Shown piece after piece: positions 12,191-23,547 of a DNA stretch of 64,000 bases. Source of the stretch: Porphyromonas sp. (GTDB taxonomy: Bacteria > Bacteroidota > Bacteroidia > Bacteroidales > Porphyromonadaceae); assembly GCA_022772085.1 (NCBI GenBank), contig JALFBN010000017.1:1-64000 (forward strand). Direction: 5' to 3'. Both the position numbers and the translations under genes were made by a program. Every line of letters starts with the position of its first letter. Position 1 is the stretch's first letter. Under the pieces are notes generated by a model. It was given only the letters and a program-made list of their open reading frames with translations, was not told the origin of the DNA and made no database searches.

Positions 12191-14929
12191 TTAGAAGTTC
12201 ACACGCATACCCATTTGCCAGGTACGTCCGAAGCCATACCATACAAGCGCATCTTCGCCCGTGAGCACATTCTTGTCATCGACCTTGCTACCATCGGTTG
12301 CATCAGCGATGTACTTCGTATTGAAGAGGTTGTTCACACCACCAAAGATCGTTGCACTCATACCCTTGTAAAGCTCAAAGTTGTAGCTTGCGGAGAGGTC
12401 CACGATAGAGTAGTTAGGCATCTTCCAAGAGTCACCTTTGAAGACCTCAAGTTCTCCTGTTTTCTTATTCTTGGAAAGACGATTGGTAGGCTCAAAGTCT
12501 GCAAAGTTTTTACCAAAATAGTTGAAGTTCCCACGCAGGTGTAGACGAGGGAACATCTCCCAATCAAAACCCAAAGCTGCCGTAACCTGAGCCGAATTAC
12601 CTACATGTACTCCATTGAGGTCGATTCGGCCTTCTCCCAAGAACTCCTGTGACTCGTTGTAGATGTCGTACTTGGAAACACCTCCCCAACGCCAGTCTCC
12701 CAAAGAGAGCATACCGGTAAGGCGAAGCTCCTTTGCAGGGCGATATTCCATATCAAGCTCAAGCCCCTTGTGGATAGCTGAGAGGTTACGGAAATTCCAA
12801 TACTGATTCTTTTCAAGTACACTTGTACGGCGGAGGAAGCGATCGTCCCACTTCGTAAAGTATCCATTAAAATTCAGACGGAACTCTTCATTTTGGAACC
12901 CATAACCGAGCTCTGCCGTCATAATCTTTTCATTGGTAAGGTGTCTATTCACCTGCGTTGAATAGTTCAAGAAGGCACCGGCAAACTTGGGAGCTCTAGT
13001 GAAATATCCGGCATTGATGAAGAAATTGTTATAGTCAAGGAACTTGTACGAAGCCCCTGCCTTGATGCTCCAGGGCATGAGATTAACGCGGTCGCTAGCT
13101 GTACGCTTTACAAACTCTTCGCCGTAGAGCGGATTCTTGAGGAAGTTGGCATGGTTAGCCACGCTATAACCATCGGGTACGAGATAACGATACCCTTCGT
13201 AGGTCACAGACCCCGAGAGGAATGCATCAAACACGTCGCTCGTGAATTCACCTTGAGCAAATACACCGGCCCATACGACCTCGCCCAAATTATGGTAGTC
13301 ATATTTATCTCCCTTACCAAGTTCCTTCTTACCATTATTTAGCTGAGATTGGAATTGAAGGCTTTGGAAGTTCTGACCACCCAAGAGGCTATAAATTTCT
13401 TTGTAGTGATCACCACGGTAGTAACGACCATCGAAACCGGCCGTCAAGGTAAAGTTATCGTCTAGGCGATTGCGATAAGAAGAGAGTAGACCGAACCATT
13501 TGTGGTTGTTCACACTATTACCAAGAATTACCTTGGAACCATTATCTCCATTAGCGGCATTGGCAGCATACACAGCTTCCCAATCAATCAAACCATCAGG
13601 AGTAGATTTGAAGTTGGTGGGGTTAGGACCAATAATGTTGCCATCCTTATCCCTGATTACCTGATATGAACGTTTCCCCTTATAGGTCTCAACCCAATTA
13701 GAGTAGTAGCCGTTTTTATCTCTAATACCGTCCACACGACGACCGCCACCCGATGCAATAGAAGCATAGAGAGCCGTGCTCAACGAAGAGCGATCATTGA
13801 TCGTCCAATAGTGGTTGAGCGAAAGTTGGGGTTTATGATAGTAGTTATAACGAGGCGTGAGCACTTTACCATCGAGGTAACCGTACTCCAAATTCATACG
13901 CGTACCGTCAGGATGCTCTTCGTATTGCGACTGCAAATGGCGAGCGGAACGCTGGTTGTGCCATTGGGGAGCACCAAATGCCGTAAATGAGAGCGTATGC
14001 GCCTCATCAATCTTCTTTGAAATATTAAGGAAATAGCTATATCCACGGAAGTCTGTTGCCTTCACATAGCCATCACCGTAAGAGGTGTTACCTGAAGCCG
14101 TAACAGCCCAACCATTATCCATAAGACCTGTAGAAACGTTAAATCCATATTTTACATAGCCATCATTACCAATGCCCATGAAGACGTTTCCACCCTTTTT
14201 AGCATCCGTGTTCTTGGTTACAATGTTGATTGTACCTCCAACTGATGAGATACCCAAACGAGAAGCACCGAGACCGCGTTGCACCTGAACAAGAGAAGAT
14301 ACGTCGGTAAGACCTACCCAGTTGCTCCAGTAGACCTTTCCTCCTTCCATGTCGTTTACGGGCACTCCGTTGATCAATACCCCAAGGTTATCGGTATCGA
14401 AACCTCGCATCATAATGCGAGAGTCTCCAAATCCTCCTCCTGAACGCGTCACGTATACCGAAGGAGTTGATTTGAGCAACTCGGGAAATTCCGTATTGAA
14501 AGCCTTAGCCTCTATTTGCTTGAGCGAAATGTTGCTCACGGGTACAGGGACCTTACGATCTTTGGGTACCACGGAAGCAATTACCTCTACCTGACCCAAG
14601 CTAACGGCATCGGGAGTAAGCATAATACGACCAAGGTCTACCTTCTTGGCACCTGCCTCAAGCTTATCGACAACAAGCTGGTTGTAACCCACGCTACGGA
14701 TCGTGATCTTGGCGCGGTTGGGTACGTCTATACGGAATTTTCCATCCAAGTCAGTCGTTACCCCTTTGAGGGTTGCACCTTGACCTGTGGTTACCGAAGC
14801 CCCAATGATAGGAGCGTTACTCTCTGAGTCCCATACCTGACCGGTCACAACGACTTGGGCAAAGGAGACTCCTACGCCTGCGATCGTAAGCACGAGAGCG
14901 CAGAGCAAACGGAATACATTTTGTCTCAT
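12191..14929 (-). CDS. TonB-dependent outer-membrane receptor with carboxypeptidase-like N-terminal domain
   Basis: 912 aa from MRQNVFRL (14929). The upstream Met at 14971 lies inside the promoter element, so it is excluded. Signal peptide (cleavage near VSFAQ), then a carboxypeptidase regulatory-like domain at about 22-110 (VTGQVWDSESNAPIIGASV). The plug domain follows (TPSVYVTRSGGG, IMMRGFDTDNLGVLINGVPV, GASRLGISSVGGTINIVTK), then a beta barrel ending in WYGFGRTWQMGMRVNF with the aromatic C-terminal residue. No SusD partner adjoins. Substrate unknown: a metal chelate, peptide or cofactor is possible. It sits between the kor and 4-hydroxybutyrate operons but has its own promoter. Confidence 0.9.
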   Translation of the reverse strand: MRQNVFRLLCALVLTIAGVGVSFAQVVVTGQVWDSESNAPIIGASVTTGQGATLKGVTTDLDGKFRIDVPNRAKITIRSVGYNQLVVDKLEAGAKKVDLGRIMLTPDAVSLGQVEVIASVVPKDRKVPVPVSNISLKQIEAKAFNTEFPELLKSTPSVYVTRSGGGFGDSRIMMRGFDTDNLGVLINGVPVNDMEGGKVYWSNWVGLTDVSSLVQVQRGLGASRLGISSVGGTINIVTKNTDAKKGGNVFMGIGNDGYVKYGFNVSTGLMDNGWAVTASGNTSYGDGYVKATDFRGYSYFLNISKKIDEAHTLSFTAFGAPQWHNQRSARHLQSQYEEHPDGTRMNLEYGYLDGKVLTPRYNYYHKPQLSLNHYWTINDRSSLSTALYASIASGGGRRVDGIRDKNGYYSNWVETYKGKRSYQVIRDKDGNIIGPNPTNFKSTPDGLIDWEAVYAANAANGDNGSKVILGNSVNNHKWFGLLSSYRNRLDDNFTLTAGFDGRYYRGDHYKEIYSLLGGQNFQSLQFQSQLNNGKKELGKGDKYDYHNLGEVVWAGVFAQGEFTSDVFDAFLSGSVTYEGYRYLVPDGYSVANHANFLKNPLYGEEFVKRTASDRVNLMPWSIKAGASYKFLDYNNFFINAGYFTRAPKFAGAFLNYSTQVNRHLTNEKIMTAELGYGFQNEEFRLNFNGYFTKWDDRFLRRTSVLEKNQYWNFRNLSAIHKGLELDMEYRPAKELRLTGMLSLGDWRWGGVSKYDIYNESQEFLGEGRIDLNGVHVGNSAQVTAALGFDWEMFPRLHLRGNFNYFGKNFADFEPTNRLSKNKKTGELEVFKGDSWKMPNYSIVDLSASYNFELYKGMSATIFGGVNNLFNTKYIADATDGSKVDDKNVLTGEDALVWYGFGRTWQMGMRVNF

Positions 14930-14970
14930 AGTTTCGCTTTTTCTATGCGTTCTTAAATTCTTTACGGGCA

Positions 14971-14978
14971 CAAAGATA
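14971..14978 (-). promoter_or_regulatory. Promoter -7 element of the TonB receptor gene
   Basis: Minus-strand TATCTTTG; start near 14965, leader about 36 nt to the ATG at 14929. It decides the start codon because the longer frame would begin inside it. The stretch 14979-15253 holds no gene I can support. Confidence 0.55.
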
Positions 14979-15370: not shown

Positions 15371-16729
15371 TTAGAGTTCCCAGATTTCTTGGTCATTGGG
15401 CACCTTGATCGCAGGATTCAGAGGAGCGATGCGAGATATGTTCATGAGGTGCTTGTAGGTAAAGTTCTCAGAAATTGAATTGTTACCCCAAGAACCGCAA
15501 CCCAACGTATTGGTTACGTTAAGACCATTTTGGATGTGACCGCCGGCCGTCGTTGCACTAGGTGCATTAACAACGATACGAGAAACCGTAGCCTTAGATC
15601 CCGTGAGAATGATGTGAGCTTGGTTGTTTGAGTGGATAGCACAAGAGTGACCATTACCTTCGTTAGCGAGGTTGCGACATGCAATGTCAACACCTTCTTC
15701 GAAGTGCTTGTAGCTGAGTGCGCACATTACAGGACACATCTTTTCGCGGCAGATCACGTCTTCTTCGCCAACACCGTTAGCTTCTACGATGATAACGCGA
15801 GAGCCTTCGGGGACATTGATACCGGCCATCTTAGCAATCTTTTGAACGCCTTGACCTACAACATCTTTGTTTATGGGACCTCCATTTTGGAAAAGGAGGT
15901 CGCGCATCTTCTGACCTTCCTCTTCAGTACAGATGTAAGCCCCGCGCTTGCGAAGGGCTGCAAATACAGCATCCTTGTCCGCTTCGTTATAAATAACACT
16001 TTGCTCTCCCGTGCAGATGATACCATTATCATAAGAACGACCATAGATAACCTTTTCGGCAGCATCTTCAAAGTCGATATCGCTATCAAAAATAACTTGC
16101 ACGTTACCGGCACCAACACCGTAAGAAGGCTTACCACTAGAATAAGCACTCTTAACCATAGCCATACCACCGGTGGCAACAACGACATCCACAGCACCCA
16201 TGAGTTGTTGGGTCATTTCAATGCTGGGTTCTTCAATAACCTGTACCATACCTTCGGGTACGTTGAAAGGCTTGATCGCTTCGAGGATGAGATCTACAGC
16301 GTGCTTAGAGCATTTTTTAGAACGGGGGTGCGGAGAGATAATGATGGCGTTGCAAGTCTTCAAAGCAAAGATGATGTTACTCATGGGAGTAACAATAGGA
16401 TTGGTGGTAGGAGTAACTGCACCAACAACGCCCATAGGCTTGGCAATCTCGATCATGCCCGTACGTTCGTCAATGTTGAGGATACCTACAGATTTCTTGT
16501 CATGGAGGTTATACCAAACACCCTTAGACTTACCACGGTTCTTAGATACTTTGTCTTCGTAAACACCCATACCTGTTTCGTCTACAGCTTCACGAGCGAG
16601 CATTTCTGCATTTTCGTAGATAACCTTAGCGGCGGCACGGCAGATGTTGTCTACTGATTGCTGATTGTGAGTAGCTTGGTACTCCTTTTGGGCCTTGCGA
16701 GCAAGGGCCACCATTTCTTTGATTTCCAT
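15371..16729 (-). CDS. sucD: CoA-acylating succinate-semialdehyde dehydrogenase
   Basis: 452 aa. Reduces succinyl-CoA to succinate semialdehyde with NAD(P)H. The fold is that of EutE/AdhE-type acylating aldehyde dehydrogenases: GVVGAVTPTTNPIVTPM, ALKTCNAIIISPHPRSKKCS, and the catalytic Cys in NGIICTGEQSVI (about residue 240). The C-terminal NLANEGNGHSCAIHSNN and CGSWGNNSISENF blocks are also typical. Last gene of the operon, 50 nt after 4-hydroxybutyrate dehydrogenase. Identification as the succinyl-CoA enzyme, rather than a generic acetaldehyde dehydrogenase, rests on its four neighbours, which form the rest of the pathway. Confidence 0.9.
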   Translation of the reverse strand: MEIKEMVALARKAQKEYQATHNQQSVDNICRAAAKVIYENAEMLAREAVDETGMGVYEDKVSKNRGKSKGVWYNLHDKKSVGILNIDERTGMIEIAKPMGVVGAVTPTTNPIVTPMSNIIFALKTCNAIIISPHPRSKKCSKHAVDLILEAIKPFNVPEGMVQVIEEPSIEMTQQLMGAVDVVVATGGMAMVKSAYSSGKPSYGVGAGNVQVIFDSDIDFEDAAEKVIYGRSYDNGIICTGEQSVIYNEADKDAVFAALRKRGAYICTEEEGQKMRDLLFQNGGPINKDVVGQGVQKIAKMAGINVPEGSRVIIVEANGVGEEDVICREKMCPVMCALSYKHFEEGVDIACRNLANEGNGHSCAIHSNNQAHIILTGSKATVSRIVVNAPSATTAGGHIQNGLNVTNTLGCGSWGNNSISENFTYKHLMNISRIAPLNPAIKVPNDQEIWEL

Positions 16730-16779: not shown

Positions 16780-17895
16780 TTAAAACAAGCGATTGTAGAT
16801 ACCTTCGATCTCTTCTACACTAAAGGGTACGTAGTTATTCTTTAAGAGACGTTGTTGCGTAACAAGTACAGACTCCGCAAAGCCACGACGCTCCTCGGGC
16901 TTCATGCCATACTCTTGCAGAGGCTTGCGACTGATGAGCTGACCGAGCAAGCCGTCAAGCGCATCGTATACGTTATCTACCGTAGAGCCGAGAAGCTCTG
17001 CCAAGTGCGCTTCCAAAGGAGCAATAGCCCCCTGAGGATTCTTAGCATGATAGAGCTTAAACACCTCAGTAAAGAACTGGTAGTTAGCTTCACCGTGGGG
17101 CACATGGTAGTTACCACCTAAGGGATAAGAGAGGGCGTGAACGGCACCTACCCCGGCATTACCGAAAGCGATACCTGCCATATTAGCAGCAATAAGCATT
17201 TCGGCTGCATACTTATGACGCTCTTCGGGTGTCGTAGCGGCGATTTTTTTGAATACATCAATGATCGTATCCATAGCGGCTAGACTGAACACACGGGTAT
17301 AGGGATTGCACTTAGGAGATACATAAGCCTCTACTGCGTGGATCAGGGCATCAATAGAAGATGCGGCATAGAAGCGGAAAGGCAATCCGGCAAGAAGTTC
17401 GGGAATGATCACTGCATCATCAGCCACGATCACATCATCGGCAAGCCCCATCTTGGTATGGCGAGACTTAATCTCTGCAATAGAGATATTAGTCACTTCA
17501 CTACCCGTACCGCACGTTGTGGGGATAATCACAAGCTGACGATCCTTGATCAGAGGAATTTTGTGGTCGAAAGCATCCATTACATCGGTCAGATCTTTGA
17601 TTACAAAGAGCTTAGCGATATCGATAACCGTACCACCACCCACTGCGATAACGCGACGGAAAGTTGCACCACCGAGATCGCGAAGGATGCTATTCATCAT
17701 TTCGTCGGAGGGTTCGCCCTGTCCGTATTTCTCTTGCATAACAAAGCGGCAAGGAAGACCGAGCTTCTCCATGAAGGGTTGATAAATGAACTCATTAGTA
17801 AGAACGAGGTCATGCTCGTTCAGTTCAAATTCCTTTGCAAACTCAGCAAAAGTCTCCGAACGGTGCAACTTAGTGCTTAACTTAAATAATTGCAT
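16780..17895 (-). CDS. 4hbD: 4-hydroxybutyrate dehydrogenase (iron-type alcohol dehydrogenase)
   Basis: 371 aa. Reduces succinate semialdehyde to 4-hydroxybutyrate. Family III ADH features: GGGTVIDIAKL (nucleotide binding), IPTTCGTGSEVTN, and the metal-binding SSIDALIHAVEAYVS and HALSYPLGGNYHVPHGEAN with the two metal His. It starts 9 nt after the CoA-transferase stop, so the two are co-transcribed. The ATG is followed by QLFKLSTKLHR. Product call combines family and context. Confidence 0.9.
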   Translation of the reverse strand: MQLFKLSTKLHRSETFAEFAKEFELNEHDLVLTNEFIYQPFMEKLGLPCRFVMQEKYGQGEPSDEMMNSILRDLGGATFRRVIAVGGGTVIDIAKLFVIKDLTDVMDAFDHKIPLIKDRQLVIIPTTCGTGSEVTNISIAEIKSRHTKMGLADDVIVADDAVIIPELLAGLPFRFYAASSIDALIHAVEAYVSPKCNPYTRVFSLAAMDTIIDVFKKIAATTPEERHKYAAEMLIAANMAGIAFGNAGVGAVHALSYPLGGNYHVPHGEANYQFFTEVFKLYHAKNPQGAIAPLEAHLAELLGSTVDNVYDALDGLLGQLISRKPLQEYGMKPEERRGFAESVLVTQQRLLKNNYVPFSVEEIEGIYNRLF

Positions 17896-17904
17896 GGATT
17901 GGGT

Positions 17905-19194
17905 TTATTTTGAGGGAAAACGTTTATTGAATTCTTCTGTAAGGGCAGGACGGAAGTCGGGATGGGCAATGGCAATAAGGGCTTTGGCACGCTCACGGAG
18001 TGTTTTTCCTTTGAGCTTAGCCGCGCCATACTCGGTTACCACATAATCCACATCGTTACGAGAAGTGGTAACAGCAGCCCCCTCAGCGAGAAGAGGCACG
18101 ATACGAGACACCTTACCCTTAGCAGCAGTAGCAGGCATAGCCATGATGCTGATACCATGAGCGGACATAGAGGCACCACGTACATAGTCTACCTGACCGC
18201 CCGTTCCGCTGAATTGCTTGTAGCCGATCGTTTCACTAGCCACTTGACCCATAAGGTCCACTTCAATACAACTATTGATGCTGACCATGCGATCGAAGTT
18301 CATTACGGTAACAGGGTCGTTCACCCAGTCTACCGAAGCAAGACGTACGTCGGGATTGTTGTTGACAAAGTCATAAAGATCTTTTGTTCCCATCAAGAAG
18401 GTCGCTGTCAATTTGCCATTGTCCAACTCTTTTTTCTTACCGGTTACAACGCCGGCACGGACGAGCTCAAGTACCCCATCAGAGAACATTTCAGTGTGGA
18501 TACCAAGATCCTTCTTTTCTTTGAGGAAGAGAAGCACAGCATCGGGAATGGCACCAATACCCAACTGGAGGGTATCTCCATCCTTCACGAGCTGAGCCAC
18601 ATTGTTACCGATCGCCTTTTCTACCTCACCAATTTTGGGGAGAGCGATCTCGTACAAAGGATAATCAGCCTCTACGATATAGTCAAGTTTAGATACATGG
18701 ATCAGGTTGTCTCCATGTACAAAAGGCATCTGCTTATTCATTTCAGCAATCACCACTTTGGCACACTCGGCAGCAGGCTTCGTATAGTCGCACGAAACTC
18801 CATAGCTACAATAGCCCTCTTCGTTGGGTTCGGATACGTGTACAACTGCCACATCCACGGGCATCGTCCCGTCTCTGAACAGACGAGGTACCTGATAGAA
18901 GAAGAGGGGGAAGAAATCCACACGACCATCAAGCAATGCCTGACGCGTATTACCACCGATAAAGTTAGTAACGTGCCTGAAATGACCATCCATCTCGGGA
19001 GCGCAATAGGGAGCATCTCCCAAAACGAGCATATGGAAAATCTTCACATCTCGATAGTTCTGATAATTATCTGCCAGAGCACGGCTGATTAACTGAGGAG
19101 CTCCTGCAGCGTGAGCCATGACTACAAAATTACCATTTTTGATGGCACGTATCGCCTCTTGTGCCGATACGATTTTGTCTTTGTACTCTTCCAT
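17905..19194 (-). CDS. abfT: 4-hydroxybutyrate CoA-transferase
   Basis: 429 aa, the size of AbfT/Cat2. Moves CoA from an acyl-CoA donor such as acetyl-CoA to 4-hydroxybutyrate. Conserved blocks: QLGIGAIPDAVLLFL (CoA binding), HTEMFSDGVLELV (containing the Glu that forms the glutamyl-CoA thioester) and FSGTGGQVDYVRGA. The C-terminal part (RNDVDYVVTEYGAAKLKGKT) is characteristic of the acetyl-CoA hydrolase/transferase family. 82 nt after the NifU-like gene. Confidence 0.9.
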   Translation of the reverse strand: MEEYKDKIVSAQEAIRAIKNGNFVVMAHAAGAPQLISRALADNYQNYRDVKIFHMLVLGDAPYCAPEMDGHFRHVTNFIGGNTRQALLDGRVDFFPLFFYQVPRLFRDGTMPVDVAVVHVSEPNEEGYCSYGVSCDYTKPAAECAKVVIAEMNKQMPFVHGDNLIHVSKLDYIVEADYPLYEIALPKIGEVEKAIGNNVAQLVKDGDTLQLGIGAIPDAVLLFLKEKKDLGIHTEMFSDGVLELVRAGVVTGKKKELDNGKLTATFLMGTKDLYDFVNNNPDVRLASVDWVNDPVTVMNFDRMVSINSCIEVDLMGQVASETIGYKQFSGTGGQVDYVRGASMSAHGISIMAMPATAAKGKVSRIVPLLAEGAAVTTSRNDVDYVVTEYGAAKLKGKTLRERAKALIAIAHPDFRPALTEEFNKRFPSK

Positions 19195-19276
19195 CGGGTA
19201 AATTATTATGGGGTTTATTCGCTATTTATTGTAGATTCTATTCCAAGCCTTAGAAGGGGATCGGATTTAGGGCTTA

Positions 19277-19600
19277 TCAGGGGTGGTGCGTTATTTCCTG
19301 GGAGCGAGATCCGAATTTACGGAGGATGTCGCGAGCCTCCTGGAGCAACTCCTCATCGGTATCCCACACGAGTATCAGATTAAACGGTATATCAGGGAAT
19401 GCTGCACGTAGCTGACCTTCCACCAAAGCATCCATGGTTTCGGTCATTGACGGACAGGTAGCACAAGCCCCCTTGAAGGCAACACGAATGTCACCTTCAG
19501 GGGATATGCTACAGAGTTTGACACCACCTCCGTGCAACGCAAGTTGCGGAGCGACGTGCGTATTCAGCACTTCTTGTACGGCATCAAAGTCTAAATTCAT
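19277..19600 (-). CDS. NifU C-terminal-domain Fe-S scaffold protein
   Basis: 107 aa. The core (HVAPQLALHGGGVKLCSI, then FKGACATCPSMTETM with a CxxC pair) is the NifU/Nfu domain that carries a labile [4Fe-4S] cluster and passes it to target enzymes. It lies between abfD, whose product needs a [4Fe-4S] cluster, and abfT. This suggests, as inference, a dedicated cluster-delivery role. A gene of this kind occupies the same place in P. gingivalis as I recall. The second half is acidic and ends in a polar tail. 23 nt downstream of the abfD stop. Confidence 0.8.
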   Translation of the reverse strand: MNLDFDAVQEVLNTHVAPQLALHGGGVKLCSISPEGDIRVAFKGACATCPSMTETMDALVEGQLRAAFPDIPFNLILVWDTDEELLQEARDILRKFGSRSQEITHHP

Positions 19601-19623
19601 AGGAATATCAATCTCTTAAAAGA

Positions 19624-21096
19624 TTACTTTCCGACTACTTGATCCTTTGTCACGTCGATATGAGCGATCTCACGAGCCATTTGCTTCTTGGCCTCAAGAT
19701 TGCCTTGACGTTGAATCATGATGCGTTGAGCCTGAGGAGACCCGGCTCCGTGCATAGACTCCGTACGATAACCAACGGCAGCCGTACCGAGTGTGATGTT
19801 TTCGATCAAGCGAAGTACACGCATACGGTTCTCTACATCCGTACCCGTTGCTCCCTGTAGGTATTTACGTACAATGGGACCGAGCATATCATCACGAAGG
19901 TCTTGCTCTGCAGGCATTGTAACCATGATACCTCCGGCGATATCTTCAGCAAGACGAGCAATTTCGTAAGGGAGACGCGTTACATTTTGCTTACATACGT
20001 TTGCAAGAAGGAGGTCGATAAGGTAGTTACCACTCTTGGTGGGTTTACCTTCTGCCGAACAAGCGATACCACAAGCGTACAATGTTTCATTAAGATGGAT
20101 CATCTCGATGAGTTTATCCTTGATGTGCGATGCCTTAGGTACACCATTGTAGTCAGCGGCGAGAGCGGCAGCACCAATGAGGACGTCGCCCACACCTACC
20201 TTACAACCACCATAAGACTGACGGTGATAACCGGCGAAACGCTCAACCATCATACCGGCATACTTAAATTCTTGGCACATGAATACGCGTTCGTTGGGGA
20301 TGAATACGTTGTCAAAAACAACTAATGCTTCATGACCACCGAAAGTATTGTTTCCAAGGTCGATGTCAGCACCCTCTTCCATCTTACGGGTATCACAGCT
20401 CTGACGACCATAGATCATGATAATACCGGGAGCGTCACTTTCGATGGCGAAAGATACGGCATAAGCCTTATCCTCTTCCTTCATAGCCTGAGTAGGCATG
20501 ATGAGGTGTTCGTGAGAGTTCACAGCACCCGTTTGGTGAGCTTTAGCTCCACAAACTACAATACCGTCGGGACGGATCTCTGTAATGTGCATGAACATAT
20601 CGGGATCGGGTTGCTGAGAGGGGCTCAAACTGCGGTCTCCCTTGGGATCAGTCATAGCACCATCGACAACGAGGTCTCGCTCTTGTACCATCTCGAGGTA
20701 CTTAACGAATCTCTTGTGATACTCGGTACCAAGATCTTGATCCATGTCGTAAGTCGTAGAATAGATCGCATTGAAAGCATCCATACCCACGCAACGTTGG
20801 AAGCAAGCTGCCGTCTTTTGGCCCATGAGACGTTGCATCTTCACCTTCTTTACGAGGTCACCGGCATTTTGATGGATGTGGCAAAAACGGTTAATGGTCT
20901 TACCGGTCAAATGGCTGGTAGCGGTCATTAGCTCCTTGTACTCGTCCTTTTGAGCTAGTTCGTAGCTCATTGCAATAGAGTTGAGAGATGGACGGATCAT
21001 GGGGTGATCTACGGGATTGTCAATACGCTTACCCATGAAGTAAACCTTTAGATCGAGTTTACGCAAGCTCTCAATGTACTCTTCTCTCGTCATCAT
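19624..21096 (-). CDS. abfD: 4-hydroxybutyryl-CoA dehydratase / vinylacetyl-CoA isomerase
   Basis: 490 aa from MMTREEYIES (21096; 21093 also possible). A purine-rich GGAAAGGAATTAAAG precedes it. The enzyme dehydrates 4-hydroxybutyryl-CoA to crotonyl-CoA with FAD and a [4Fe-4S] cluster. The cluster ligands known from the Clostridium enzyme (Cys99, Cys103, His292, Cys299) all have counterparts: CFQRC near residue 98-102 and H-x6-C in YHRQSYGGC near residue 290. Further family blocks are SYELAQKDEYKEL, GVVCGAK-like and QDLRDDMLGPIVRKYLQG. First gene of the operon. The nearest convincing promoter is about 1 kb upstream, ahead of a cobalamin riboswitch. Confidence 0.93.
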   Translation of the reverse strand: MMTREEYIESLRKLDLKVYFMGKRIDNPVDHPMIRPSLNSIAMSYELAQKDEYKELMTATSHLTGKTINRFCHIHQNAGDLVKKVKMQRLMGQKTAACFQRCVGMDAFNAIYSTTYDMDQDLGTEYHKRFVKYLEMVQERDLVVDGAMTDPKGDRSLSPSQQPDPDMFMHITEIRPDGIVVCGAKAHQTGAVNSHEHLIMPTQAMKEEDKAYAVSFAIESDAPGIIMIYGRQSCDTRKMEEGADIDLGNNTFGGHEALVVFDNVFIPNERVFMCQEFKYAGMMVERFAGYHRQSYGGCKVGVGDVLIGAAALAADYNGVPKASHIKDKLIEMIHLNETLYACGIACSAEGKPTKSGNYLIDLLLANVCKQNVTRLPYEIARLAEDIAGGIMVTMPAEQDLRDDMLGPIVRKYLQGATGTDVENRMRVLRLIENITLGTAAVGYRTESMHGAGSPQAQRIMIQRQGNLEAKKQMAREIAHIDVTKDQVVGK

Positions 21097-21856
21097 AACT
21101 TTAATTCCTTTCCTTTTTATACCAAGGCACACTGACCTCTCCGCTAAGCGACTCTATAAGTCCTCTTGAAATGCCTCATGCTTTCCGTCCCACAGGAAAC
21201 AGGGACACCACGCGAGGGAATCACAAGAGGGGCGAATAGGGATCGGGGGGTACCCTGTCTATTCTTTGTAGTTATATTCTAATTCTATCGGCACAGTGCA
21301 TTTCCTTTAGAGTCCTGCTGATCGTTTGTTGCAAAGAGAGAACACACGACACAAAAGAAAAAGCCCCTACACTTCTTGTCCGACCTCGCACCTCCTTTTC
21401 ATCAATGAAAGGGGTACACACTCGTCAAAGCGGGGAGCCATACTAGCAGGCAGTGTTTGGTTCTCTAGGAGGAATCTATCAAGCGTGCGATAAGGACAGC
21501 GACAAAGAGCCTGCAAAACTCCGAGAGAGGATGGTTCCTCCCTCAGGCTCTTGGGATAAGCACCTTTTCAAAAAGGTCTTCCCAAGCTCTACATCAATCC
21601 CGAAGTTCCACTCACGTCTTCAGAGAGATTCTGAGAGTGCTCTAGAGAGGGGCACCCAGAGAAAGAGAGTGAGAGCAGAACCTCTCTCAGAAGAGTTTTA
21701 CACACATACAATTACAATCAATTATAATATGTGAAACTCCCACGCTACAATGAGGCATCTCTTACAGATGTAAACATCCGAATACCTCATCCCTTCTTTT
21801 TCACCCACCGTCTCCTATTCCCCCGGAATAGGCGGGTTTGTCTTACAATACAAGTT
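21097..21856 (-). other. Long structured leader between the B12 riboswitch and abfD
   Basis: About 750 nt without a credible frame on the minus strand. It is rich in hairpins: CCTATTCC/GGAATAGG (21814-21832), a 9-bp stem with an inner stem (21750-21790), CTTGGGA/TCCCAAG enclosing ACCTTTT/AAAAGGT (21550-21586), an overlapping AAGAGCCTG/CAGGCTCTT stem enclosing a 9-bp hairpin (21505-21552), and a terminator-like element (21353-21414). The 13-mer GTCTTCCCAAGCT occurs both here (21576-21588) and in the riboswitch (21891-21903). No TAnnTTTG promoter was seen on the minus strand between the riboswitch and abfD. It may be an extended attenuating leader or a separate B12-controlled non-coding RNA. 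Confidence 0.5.
21353..21414 (-). terminator. Possible attenuator/terminator in the abfD leader
   Basis: CCCCT (minus strand, 21410-21414) can pair with AGGGG (21364-21368) around an inner CCTTTCAT/ATGAAAAGG hairpin. TTTTTCTTTT follows directly on the minus strand. The outer stem is short (5 bp), so strength is uncertain. If active, it would end riboswitch transcripts about 260 nt before abfD. Confidence 0.35.
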
Positions 21857-22063
21857 ATGGCAGGTCTTCTGACTTCCTCTCCAAGACAGCGTCTTCCCAA
21901 GCTTCGTTTTCTTTTACACTTCGCTAAGTGACCTAGTGCCGCTCAGAATGGGGCTACCCAAACAAGGTTACAGCTGTGGGGACAGTCTCGGACTTACACC
22001 GAATTCCCTTTTCAAAGGCGTGCGATCAAGAGAGAGCAACTGAACCCAGTAAAATCACCTTAA
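21857..22063 (-). promoter_or_regulatory. Cobalamin (adenosylcobalamin-type) riboswitch
   Basis: Minus strand. The B12 box reads AGTCAGAAGACCTGCC (21859-21874). Upstream lie the other conserved core blocks in the right order: AAAAGGGAA, then TCGGTGTAAGTCCGA, ACTGTCCCCACAGCTGTAA, and a TTGGGAAGA block just before the box. The element begins about 20 nt after the start predicted from the promoter at 22089-22119. Such riboswitches normally shut expression when B12 is present. The only sense-strand gene downstream is abfD and its operon; no B12 transport or synthesis gene is nearby. Confidence 0.93.
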
Positions 22064-22088
22064 CACATCGTCTTCACCATAACACCTG

Positions 22089-22119
22089 CAAAGGTAGTAC
22101 TTCTTTTTTGTTTTGCCAA
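22089..22119 (-). promoter_or_regulatory. Promoter of the riboswitch transcript
   Basis: Minus strand TTG (22117-22119), 20-nt spacer, TACCTTTG (22089-22096). Predicted start near 22083, just before the riboswitch. By this consensus it is the closest good promoter upstream of abfD. Confidence 0.7.
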
Positions 22120-22207
22120 GCCTAAGACGTTAATATCCATCTCCACCCCCGGAGACACTAAAAAAACACTCAAAGAGGCACCCCTTAGCATCTTACAGCC
22201 CAAGAGA

Positions 22208-22298
22208 TTAAAAAATCCAGCCCAATAGCAAATAAACCGTTGGGCAAGATTTTCATAACTTCTGCCCTGCAGTTTTGGAAGTTCTCTGAGTAGCGTTA
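22208..22298 (-). ncRNA. Candidate small RNA of about 90 nt
   Basis: Minus strand. TACATTTG at 22304-22311 predicts a start near 22298. Two hairpins follow: AACTTC/GAAGTT (22257-22283) and GCCCAA/TTGGGC (22220-22245). The second is followed by TGGATTTTTT, which ends it like an intrinsic terminator. No open frame and no adjoining gene on this strand. The absence of a TTTG box upstream lowers confidence. Confidence 0.3.
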
Positions 22299-22412
22299 TA
22301 TATCAAATGTAAGAGATAGGTAAAGACTCGTAGTCCTATATCGGCACAAGACAATCTACCTAAATAAAAGGAAAGCGAGCGACCATCACGATCATCGAAA
22401 CCCTAAAATCGC

Positions 22413-22420
22413 TATCTTTG
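22413..22420 (+). promoter_or_regulatory. Promoter -7 element of the mltG operon
   Basis: TATCTTTG; start near 22427, giving a leader of about 23 nt to the ATG at 22450. It supports ATG 22450 over the TTG codon at 22432, which would lie almost at the transcript start. Confidence 0.5.
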
Positions 22421-22449
22421 CGACACCTAATTTGTATAAAGCGAAGCCG

Positions 22450-23547
22450 ATGAAAAGAAGAAAAACCTATTATCAGCCGAAATGGCGTCCGGGGCAAGAT
22501 CGACGCAAGGCACGTCGCCGTCGTACTCGTCGCTCGTTTATCGTTACTTTTTTTGTGCTTTTGGCACTCCTCATAATGATCACTCTTGGGCTTTATCGCC
22601 TAGCACCTATTGGGAAATCAGGCGAGGGGACCTATGTATATATCACCGAAGAGACTACCCAAGAGGAGGTACTTCAACAAATCGAAAAGCGAATCCTCAT
22701 ACGTTACCCCAGTGTACTGCACCGTGTTGCCTCATGGGTACTCCCCAAAGAGAAACTCCTCAAGGAGGGTCGTTACCGCATTGAGCCCTCCATGAGTATG
22801 CGTACACTCTTTGCCACCCTTCAAGGGGGTGAGGAGAGTCTCATCACCCTCAAACTCAATCGAACAACTCGCACCCAAGAGGATTTGATCAAGACGCTCA
22901 CCCAAGAGCTCCGCATGAAGCCCGAAGAGCTCCGAGACAAACTCCATGATGCAACCTATTGTTTGTCGTTGGGACTCGACACCATTTCGATACGAACACT
23001 CTTTATTCCAGGGGAATACAAAGTGCACTGGGACATCAGCCCCGACTCTCTTATCGCCACTTTCCAAAAGCAGTACAACGAGTTTTGGACCTCAGAGCGC
23101 AAGCAACTGGCTTCAGAAGTGGGATTCTCTCCCGCAGAAATCACCACTATCGCCTCTATCGTCCAAGAGGAGAGTGCCAAGAAAGACGAATATGCCACCA
23201 TCGCAGGACTTTATATTAATCGGTTACGCAATAACATGAAGTTGCAGGCGGACCCGACCGCCCGCTACGCCTATGGAGATTTTTCGGTGAATAGAATTGG
23301 GAAAGATCAGCTGAACGCCAACTCGCCCTACAATACTTACAAGGTCAAAGGTCTTCCCCCGGGCCCCATCTGCTACCCGGAAACAGAGACCATAGACCAA
23401 GTACTCCACTACAAAAAGCATGACTATATATATATGTGTGCTAAAGCTGATTTCTCAGGCTATCACGCCTTTGCCTCTCGCTACATGGAACACAAGCAAA
23501 ACGCAAAAGCCTATCAAGCGGAGTTAGATAGACGTTCGATACACTAA
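22450..23547 (+). CDS. mltG: Endolytic murein transglycosylase MltG (YceG-like)
   Basis: 365 aa. A basic N-terminus (MKRRKTYYQ and an Arg-rich stretch) leads into one membrane anchor (about 30-50, FIVTFFVLLALLIMITLGLY). The YceG domain follows, with the catalytic Glu in ASIVQEESAKKDEYATIAG and the conserved NRLRNNMKLQADPTARYA and NTYKVKGLPPGPIC motifs. It cleaves nascent glycan strands in peptidoglycan and thereby limits their length. First gene of a six-gene plus-strand run. The start is set by the promoter at 22413. Confidence 0.9.
   Translation: MKRRKTYYQPKWRPGQDRRKARRRRTRRSFIVTFFVLLALLIMITLGLYRLAPIGKSGEGTYVYITEETTQEEVLQQIEKRILIRYPSVLHRVASWVLPKEKLLKEGRYRIEPSMSMRTLFATLQGGEESLITLKLNRTTRTQEDLIKTLTQELRMKPEELRDKLHDATYCLSLGLDTISIRTLFIPGEYKVHWDISPDSLIATFQKQYNEFWTSERKQLASEVGFSPAEITTIASIVQEESAKKDEYATIAGLYINRLRNNMKLQADPTARYAYGDFSVNRIGKDQLNANSPYNTYKVKGLPPGPICYPETETIDQVLHYKKHDYIYMCAKADFSGYHAFASRYMEHKQNAKAYQAELDRRSIH

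What the first reader, a model, noticed from the sequence alone, without database searches (positions are those of the whole stretch)
19277..22119. A cobalamin riboswitch appears to control the 4-hydroxybutyrate (butyrate) operon
The conserved B12-riboswitch blocks and box lie on the minus strand at 21857-22063 behind a good promoter. The only downstream gene on that strand is abfD, followed by the rest of the succinyl-CoA to crotonyl-CoA route. No TAnnTTTG promoter was found between them. None of these enzymes needs B12. Methylmalonyl-CoA mutase, which does need B12, competes for succinyl-CoA and leads to propionate. A B12-off switch on this operon would send carbon to butyrate when B12 is scarce and to propionate when it is plentiful. 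I do not know of a description of this logic.
Basis: partly seen in the sequence, partly recalled or inferred. Interest (0 to 1): 0.85.

Follow-up and report, generated by a model that had tools for sequence, protein, structure and literature searches.

The report
B12 riboswitch on a butyrate operon
An RNA element of the kind that senses vitamin B12 sits in front of the genes that turn succinyl-CoA into butyrate in this Porphyromonas-type bacterium and in a number of relatives, which suggests that B12 supply helps decide whether they make butyrate or propionate; the response itself has not been measured.

Summary
The riboswitch is real: RF00174, 71.4 bits (gathering 31.5), window 21842-22059 minus. 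The pairing with abfD is not a one-off: 15 of 19 judged genus genomes and 18 further Bacteroidales, Tannerella forsythia included. The switch's hairpin P13 lies just 3' of the aptamer and its loop L13 covaries with aptamer loop L5 (0 of 300 permutations reach the observed pairing). All 33 genomes with the switch at abfD have a methylmalonyl-CoA mutase match; of 26 without it, 7 have none (p 0.0019). In P. circumdentaria and a near relative neither mutase nor any cobalamin aptamer was found, yet abfD, the leader promoter and P13 remain. Not shown: ligand binding, sign of the response, or that the transcript reaches abfD. The leader here is long (745 nt; median of 33 is 255) and holds a terminator-like hairpin, so the step after P13 is open. 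A 2020 paper mentions the abfD link for Tannerella in one sentence; the butyrate/propionate logic was not found in ten paper searches. Verdict: new variant of a known kind.

The parts
22089..22119 (-). Bacteroidetes-type promoter: TTGG 22119-22116 and TACCTTTG 22096-22089 (consensus recalled)
   Evidence: same block in G005, and in G003 and G007 where no aptamer was found
21842..22059 (-). Cobalamin riboswitch aptamer (RF00174), B12 box intact
   Evidence: 71.4 bits; one of two in the genome
21977..21982 (-). Loop L5 (UCCCCA) of the aptamer
21803..21837 (-). Expression-platform hairpin P13, loop L13 GGGGGAAUA at 21824-21816, five contiguous pairs with L5
   Evidence: fold; covariation with L5; core 20-mer exact in 6 genomes, one exact place each
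21352..21460 (-). Terminator-like element: CCAAACACTGCC 21460-21449, hairpin 21439-21362, T-rich tail to 21352
   Evidence: segment -31.1 kcal/mol, shuffles -21.6 sd 5.3; counterparts in G005, G003, G007
21097..21841 (-). Leader between aptamer and abfD start (745 nt); 661 bases of it match nothing else in 26 genus genomes by DNA search
19624..21096 (-). abfD, 4-hydroxybutyryl-CoA dehydratase
19277..19600 (-). NifU-domain protein
17905..19194 (-). CoA-transferase (annotated 4-hydroxybutyrate CoA-transferase; P. gingivalis homologue acts on butyryl-CoA and propionyl-CoA)
   Evidence: PMC4949257 passages
16780..17895 (-). iron-type alcohol dehydrogenase, probable 4-hydroxybutyrate dehydrogenase
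15371..16729 (-). sucD, CoA-dependent succinate-semialdehyde dehydrogenase

Best explanation
A cobalamin riboswitch in the leader of the abfD operon lowers expression of the B12-independent succinyl-CoA to butyrate route when adenosylcobalamin is present and releases it when it is scarce. Shown here: aptamer, promoter motif, L5-L13 kissing-loop hairpin, operon, conservation, tie to methylmalonyl-CoA mutase. Inferred: ligand binding; P13 being stabilised by L5 when ligand is bound; an OFF sign (usual for this class); reading through the leader to abfD; and the physiological use, namely that succinyl-CoA goes to propionate through methylmalonyl-CoA mutase when its cofactor is at hand and to butyrate when it is not. 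How P13 acts on a start codon 706 nt further on is unknown; attenuation at the terminator-like hairpin 21439-21362 or Rho-type polarity are the likeliest routes.
For: RF00174 far above gathering. Directly before abfD in 33 distinct genomes (15 in the genus; 18 others), with the CoA-transferase after abfD in all 33. L5 and L13 covary (CCCC/GGGG, CUCU/AGAG, GCG/CGC types), at least 4 contiguous pairs in 24 of 33, 0 of 300 permutations. Mutase match in 33 of 33 with the switch, none in 7 of 26 without (p 0.0019); among genomes with a cobalamin aptamer match somewhere, 33 of 33 against 17 of 22 (p 0.0076). In G003 and G007 neither mutase nor aptamer was found, but promoter and P13 remain before abfD. 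The genus uses the same aptamer class before nrdD, an anaerobic reductase that needs no B12 (recalled), in 8 of 84 cases; in five of the eight the start codon lies in the P13-like hairpin (by eye).
Against: No expression or binding data. The gap is 745 nt here and holds a terminator-like hairpin found in four species. No pairing of L13 with the later leader beyond chance (mean z -0.01 over 31 leaders, one at 2.7), so no antiterminator was found. The mutase is also present in 19 of 26 genomes without the switch, so the tie is one-sided; genomes are related and many are metagenome assemblies. TAnnTTTG is seen upstream of the aptamer in only 10 of 33 leaders (3.4 expected). An activating corrinoid switch is known (PMC10653944).
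Confidence: 0.68

Rival explanations
1. The switch controls only a short leader RNA that ends at the hairpin 21439-21362; abfD has its own promoter downstream.
For: Terminator-like hairpin with T-rich tail in G000, G005, G003 and G007 (segments -31.1, -26.2, -19.7, -19.7 kcal/mol; shuffles -21.6, -19.7, -11.2, -11.5 with sd about 5). 13 terminator-like sites in 37 leaders against 4.3 expected, 7 of the 13 in the 33 leaders with a switch. An AT-rich stretch follows it (by eye). abfD stands in a table of high expression values for P. gingivalis (PMC5807917, passage without the table's heading).
Against: No TAnnTTTG in the gap; the simple terminator scan of the region is near chance (5 found, 3.0 sd 1.7 expected); in the 33 leaders the median distance is 255 nt; the leader promoter is kept where the aptamer is gone.
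Confidence: 0.15
2. In this species the switch is decoupled: the leader has grown and the aptamer no longer matters for abfD.
For: Gap 745 nt against a median of 255; gap sequence without a DNA match in the genus; aptamer scores lower than most in the genus (71.4 bits).
Against: L5-L13 match is five pairs, tied best (6 of 33 have five); the close relative G005 scores 87.2 bits with a 578-nt gap; in G003 and G007 the aptamer has decayed beyond recognition, so keeping it here suggests use.
Confidence: 0.1
3. B12 activates the operon (ON switch).
For: One activating corrinoid riboswitch, called the first known, is described (PMC10653944 passages).
Against: In that case P13 and the terminator overlap; here the only terminator-like hairpin found lies over 360 nt from P13. 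An operon that needs no B12 and competes with a B12 enzyme fits repression better.
Confidence: 0.07

Closest known systems
Cobalamin riboswitches on isozymes of B12-dependent enzymes
   Same: Same aptamer class and same logic of releasing a B12-free alternative when B12 is short; nrdD cases in the same genus; the category is named in PMC3766115 (passages).
   Different: The target is a fermentation branch that competes for a substrate, not an enzyme doing the same reaction; P13 is far from the start codon.
Cobalamin riboswitch upstream of 4-hydroxybutyryl-CoA dehydratase in Tannerella (PMC7160235, passages)
   Same: The same element; found here in T. forsythia (L120, L121).
   Different: That paper gives one sentence, labels the gene adenosylcobalamin biosynthesis and, in the passages seen, draws no link to butyrate (the word does not occur in its main text); it puts a Porphyromonas switch upstream of a hypothetical protein.
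M. tuberculosis ppe2 B12 switch with an upstream ORF (PMC11260477, passages)
   Same: The L13 hairpin masks a site other than the main gene's own start.
   Different: No conserved upstream ORF was seen in these leaders by eye; not tested.
Xylanibacter ruminicola B12-dependent propionate (PMC11575231, passages)
   Same: B12 decides propionate output in a Bacteroidales member.
   Different: There no cobalamin riboswitch lies near the propionate genes, and the term 4-hydroxybutyr does not occur in the main text.

Membership tests
Cobalamin riboswitch (RF00174) | Covariance model score above gathering, full length | tested here: met
   71.4 against 31.5 bits, model 1-189
Cobalamin riboswitch (RF00174) | L5-L13 kissing loop with a P13 hairpin 3' of the aptamer | tested here: met
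   five pairs UCCCC/GGGGA here; covariation over 33 leaders
Cobalamin riboswitch (RF00174) | Binds adenosylcobalamin or relatives | not testable with these tools
   needs in-line probing or ITC
Cobalamin riboswitch (RF00174) | Changes expression of the gene downstream | not testable with these tools
   no expression data; P13 is 706 nt from the abfD start
B12 switch on a B12-independent alternative | Target needs no B12 | tested here: met
   AbfD matches the dehydratase 1u8v over its length; that this enzyme uses FeS and FAD and no B12 is recalled
B12 switch on a B12-independent alternative | B12-dependent competitor in the same genome | tested here: met
   PF01642 twice in G000; 33 of 33 genomes with the switch, fragmentary in L122, L123 and L162
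B12 switch on a B12-independent alternative | No switch where the competitor is absent | tested here: met
   0 of 7 counted mutase-less abfD genomes have it; at least five of the seven are metagenome assemblies of unstated completeness
B12 switch on a B12-independent alternative | Expression platform next to the start codon or a terminator it can toggle | tested here: inconclusive
   terminator-like hairpin present but no toggling pairing found

The most novel reading that the evidence does not exclude
Across several Bacteroidales lineages adenosylcobalamin acts as a branch-point signal through RNA: it represses the 4-hydroxybutyrate/butyrate operon while it powers the competing propionate branch, so the B12 supply in a microbial community sets the butyrate to propionate ratio. 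After the mutase is lost the aptamer decays, while the P13 hairpin and promoter stay and may have a second role in the leader.
Probability: 0.55. Interest if true: 0.8.

Novelty: new variant of a known kind. Interest (0 to 1): 0.62.

Why it matters
Butyrate and propionate from oral and gut Bacteroidales act on host tissue, and what sets their ratio is not settled (recalled). A cofactor-sensing switch on the butyrate branch would make the ratio depend on B12 from the host or neighbours, and a vitamin-supplementation experiment can test it. It would also extend B12 riboswitch targets from isozymes to a competing pathway.

Tried and rejected
Other RNA families around the leader (21090-22300): besides RF00174 only matches with E 2.2 or worse. 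Gap as a mobile or repeated element: 661 bases of it match only themselves in 26 genus genomes. Antiterminator made by L13 with the later leader: mean z -0.01 over 31 leaders (29 of the 33 with a switch, plus G003 and G007). Upstream ORF starting in the P13 3' arm: read by eye in the leaders; start codons there differ (ATG, ACG, ATA or none); no test run. Promoter contrast between leaders with and without the switch: 4 of 33 against 7 of 26 have TAnnTTTG in the last 250 nt, p 0.19, no support. Energy folding of 22085-21800 (aptamer plus P13) is no better than shuffles (z 0.53). The first L5 pattern was too narrow and was replaced. Papers: all ten searches used; two searches returned none. Hovik et al., credited by PMC5771137 with describing the P. 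gingivalis riboswitches, was looked up by a recalled PubMed id and is not held under it, so prior notice there cannot be excluded.
Full report
What was checked. The window is G000:C9:1-64000 of a genome of 2,056,487 bases; no tool names the species, and its genus-mates include named Porphyromonas. A covariance search of the whole window finds one riboswitch, RF00174, at 21842-22059 on the minus strand, 71.4 bits against a gathering score of 31.5, matching the model end to end with the B12 box intact. It is one of two in the genome.

The operon. Downstream on the same strand lie abfD (19624-21096), a NifU-domain protein (19277-19600), a CoA-transferase (17905-19194), an iron-type dehydrogenase (16780-17895) and sucD (15371-16729). 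PDB sequence matches support the names: 1u8v for AbfD, 3eh7 and 3d3u for the CoA-transferase, 30sm (Cvir-Hbd2) for the dehydrogenase, 8cei for SucD; NifU by Pfam. None of the four enzymes reached an NCBIfam curated cut-off. Spaces between genes are 9 to 82 nt. The neighbour on the far side, an MltG-type gene, is divergent. In P. [quoted passage not shown] The operon thus seems to hold a butyrate-forming step as well.

Conservation. In the genus, RF00174 matches in 23 of 26 genomes and abfD in 20 of 26. One of the 20 (G021) has its abfD at a contig end; of the other 19, 15 have the aptamer directly upstream on the same strand, the exceptions being G003, G007, G009 and G016. I located 84 of the 85 listed aptamers; the one left out is below the cut-off. 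A scan of named genomes kept the best 80 of 525 abfD relatives; I scanned 60 of the 80 with Rfam, and 22 of the 60 have the aptamer upstream of abfD on its strand: Tannerella forsythia, P. levii, P. somerae, P. crevioricanis, P. uenonis and uncultured Bacteroidales among them. Four of the 22 are genus genomes already counted (by equal contig length), leaving 18 new ones, 33 in all. None of the ten scanned loci titled as Bacillota, Thermotogae or Geothrix has it; an eleventh, L133, titled Ruminococcus, groups with Bacteroidales on the tree and was counted with them. In a broader draw abfD itself is rare: 11 of 295 genomes of the order. The gap between aptamer and abfD is 167 to 818 nt, median 255; the longest (L134) holds an ORF (by eye). 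The CoA-transferase follows abfD in all 33. On an AbfD tree of 64 rows the switch needs 10 gains or losses against 21.6 in shuffled labels, so it is inherited in clusters, with several losses or gains.

The switch's own hairpin. Directly 3' of the aptamer is a hairpin at 21837-21803 with loop GGGGGAAUA. Corrinoid switches work through a kissing loop between L5 of the aptamer and L13 of this hairpin (PMC10653944, passages). I read L5 from 102 of 102 aptamers (84 of the genus, 18 others). In the 33 abfD leaders L13 follows L5 when it changes: CCCC with GGGG, CUCU with AGAG, UCGCG with CGCG, CCCU with AGGG. At least four contiguous pairs occur in 24 of 33; the mean is 3.85 with a leader's own L5 and 3.01 with that of other leaders, and 0 of 300 permutations of L5 reach the observed mean. 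Nine leaders have fewer pairs, four of them (L150, L154-L156) with a form that seems to need a bulge. Relatedness inflates such tests, but the different loop types are compensatory changes. In this window the match is five pairs.

Tie to the B12-dependent competitor. Methylmalonyl-CoA mutase (PF01642) is found in 24 of 26 genus genomes; the two without it, G003 and G007, are among the three genomes with no cobalamin aptamer match (the third, G020, is 54% complete). Both keep an abfD (in G007 in two pieces, and that genome is 88% complete). Outside the genus list I examined the mutase in 46 genomes (39 with it); 40 of the 46 enter the count. Dropped: L114 (duplicate), L118, L149, L157 and L170 (too little upstream sequence; the first three have the mutase, L170 has none and no aptamer in its 556 nt) and L174 (no mutase, not scanned for aptamers). 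In all: with the switch at abfD 33 of 33 have a mutase match; without it 19 of 26, 7 lacking (Fisher p 0.0019). Restricted to genomes with a cobalamin aptamer match somewhere: 33 of 33 against 17 of 22, p 0.0076 (two of the 22, L137 and L138, have only a below-cut-off match). This suggests that the switch at abfD follows the mutase and not just B12 use. Caveats: the rows are related, at least five of the seven mutase-less genomes are metagenome assemblies, the mutase of L122, L123 and L162 is fragmentary, and 19 genomes have the mutase but no switch. On the tree joint absence lies in at least three places: G003, L144/L147 (near L162, which has both) and L158/L167 (G007 was not in the tree).

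A natural relic. Between promoter and abfD, no aptamer is found in G003 and G007, yet the promoter block TTGGCAgAACAAAAA..TAACTTTG and the P13 hairpin remain. The 20 bases of its core are exact in G000, G003, G005, G007, G010 and G022, one exact place each (3-mismatch matches lie elsewhere in G006, G009 and G000). This suggests that the promoter before the aptamer is the one abfD uses, and that P13 may have a role of its own.

What speaks against, or is open. This species has a 745-nt leader, 661 bases of which have no DNA match elsewhere in 26 genomes. In it, and in G005, G003 and G007, a shared sequence CCAAACACTGCC is followed by a hairpin with a T-rich tail; segment energies are -31.1, -26.2, -19.7 and -19.7 kcal/mol against shuffle means of -21.6, -19.7, -11.2 and -11.5 (sd about 5), so each alone is only one to two sd beyond chance; its sharing by four species counts for more. 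Over 37 leaders (33 with a switch, 4 without) I count 13 terminator-like sites against 4.3 expected, 7 in the 33 and 6 in the 4 (that scan is too short-ranged for the element in this window). The simple scan of 19000-22500 gives 5 against 3.0 (sd 1.7), no excess. A transcript that stops before abfD is therefore possible. No consensus promoter was found in this gap, but Bacteroidetes promoters are degenerate (recalled). A simple antiterminator by L13 was not supported. TAnnTTTG is found within 150 nt upstream of the aptamer in 10 of 33 leaders against 3.4 expected, so in 23 leaders this pattern shows no promoter. Leaders without the switch do not clearly have a nearer promoter. The sign of the response is inferred. 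abfD (PG0692) stands in a table of PMC5807917 with a high expression value beside rpoB and fusA (passage, heading not seen), so repression there may be partial.

Comparison with what is known. The same genus has the aptamer in front of nrdD in 8 of 84 cases (sequence match; two checked by Pfam NRDD); in five of the eight the start codon lies in the P13-like hairpin (by eye). That is the known logic: release the B12-free alternative when B12 is short (category of isozymes in PMC3766115, passages). The abfD case extends it from an isozyme to a competing branch. PMC7160235 has one sentence on the riboswitch upstream of 4-hydroxybutyryl-CoA dehydratase in Tannerella, labelled adenosylcobalamin biosynthesis (passages). 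PMC5771137 says that five cobalamin riboswitches are annotated in P. gingivalis strains and were described by Hovik et al. (passage; that paper is not held). PMC3764172 mentions one before the receptor gene PGN_0704 (passages). I found no statement of the butyrate/propionate logic in searches, of which I opened ten papers by passages only (searches cover eleven look-ups); the library lacks most subscription papers.

Verdict. The reading as a B12-responsive butyrate switch is the best explanation (0.68), with the mechanism after P13, the sign and the physiology still to be measured.

Noticed in passing
G000:C7:82392-82578 plus (L096 4393-4579): The genome's second cobalamin riboswitch has no convincing ORF for 1115 nt, until a peptidase M3 gene; G005 is alike (1040 nt). 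Aptamers of G024:C30, G025:C1:1817256, G001:C1:1586052, G021:C210 and G023:C3:140119 also lack an ORF of 100 aa on their strand for at least 1.2 kb of the sequence held. Candidates for switch-controlled noncoding RNA.
   Followed up: partly
L010 (G012:C1:1588005-1588204 minus): Aptamer faces a convergent epimerase-like ORF (named by eye) on the other strand, 300-1278 nt downstream: possible antisense arrangement.
   Followed up: no
L071 (G012:C1:409109-409323 and 407256-407459): Two aptamers in tandem before abfD, with no ORF of 100 aa between them.
   Followed up: no
L134 1683-2500: Aptamer, then a MarC-like ORF (named by eye), then abfD: the switch may cover both genes.
   Followed up: no
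L105 and L108 (G003, G007): P13 hairpin core kept letter for letter where no aptamer is found.
   Followed up: partly
L051/L052 (G007:C34), L048 (G018:C34): abfD split into two overlapping matches in G007, and one stop in the G018 match; assembly error or decay not decided.
   Followed up: no
window 12191-14971 minus: TonB-dependent receptor 400 nt after sucD, with a carboxypeptidase-regulatory N-terminal domain and sub-cut-off likeness to B12 and heme receptors; not part of the operon on present evidence.
   Followed up: no
L025 (G008:C8) and L026 (G006:C1:985515): Cobalamin riboswitch about 500 nt upstream of a permease gene (Asp-Al_Ex, TrkA_C by Pfam in L025; L026 alike by sequence): unusual target.
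   Followed up: no
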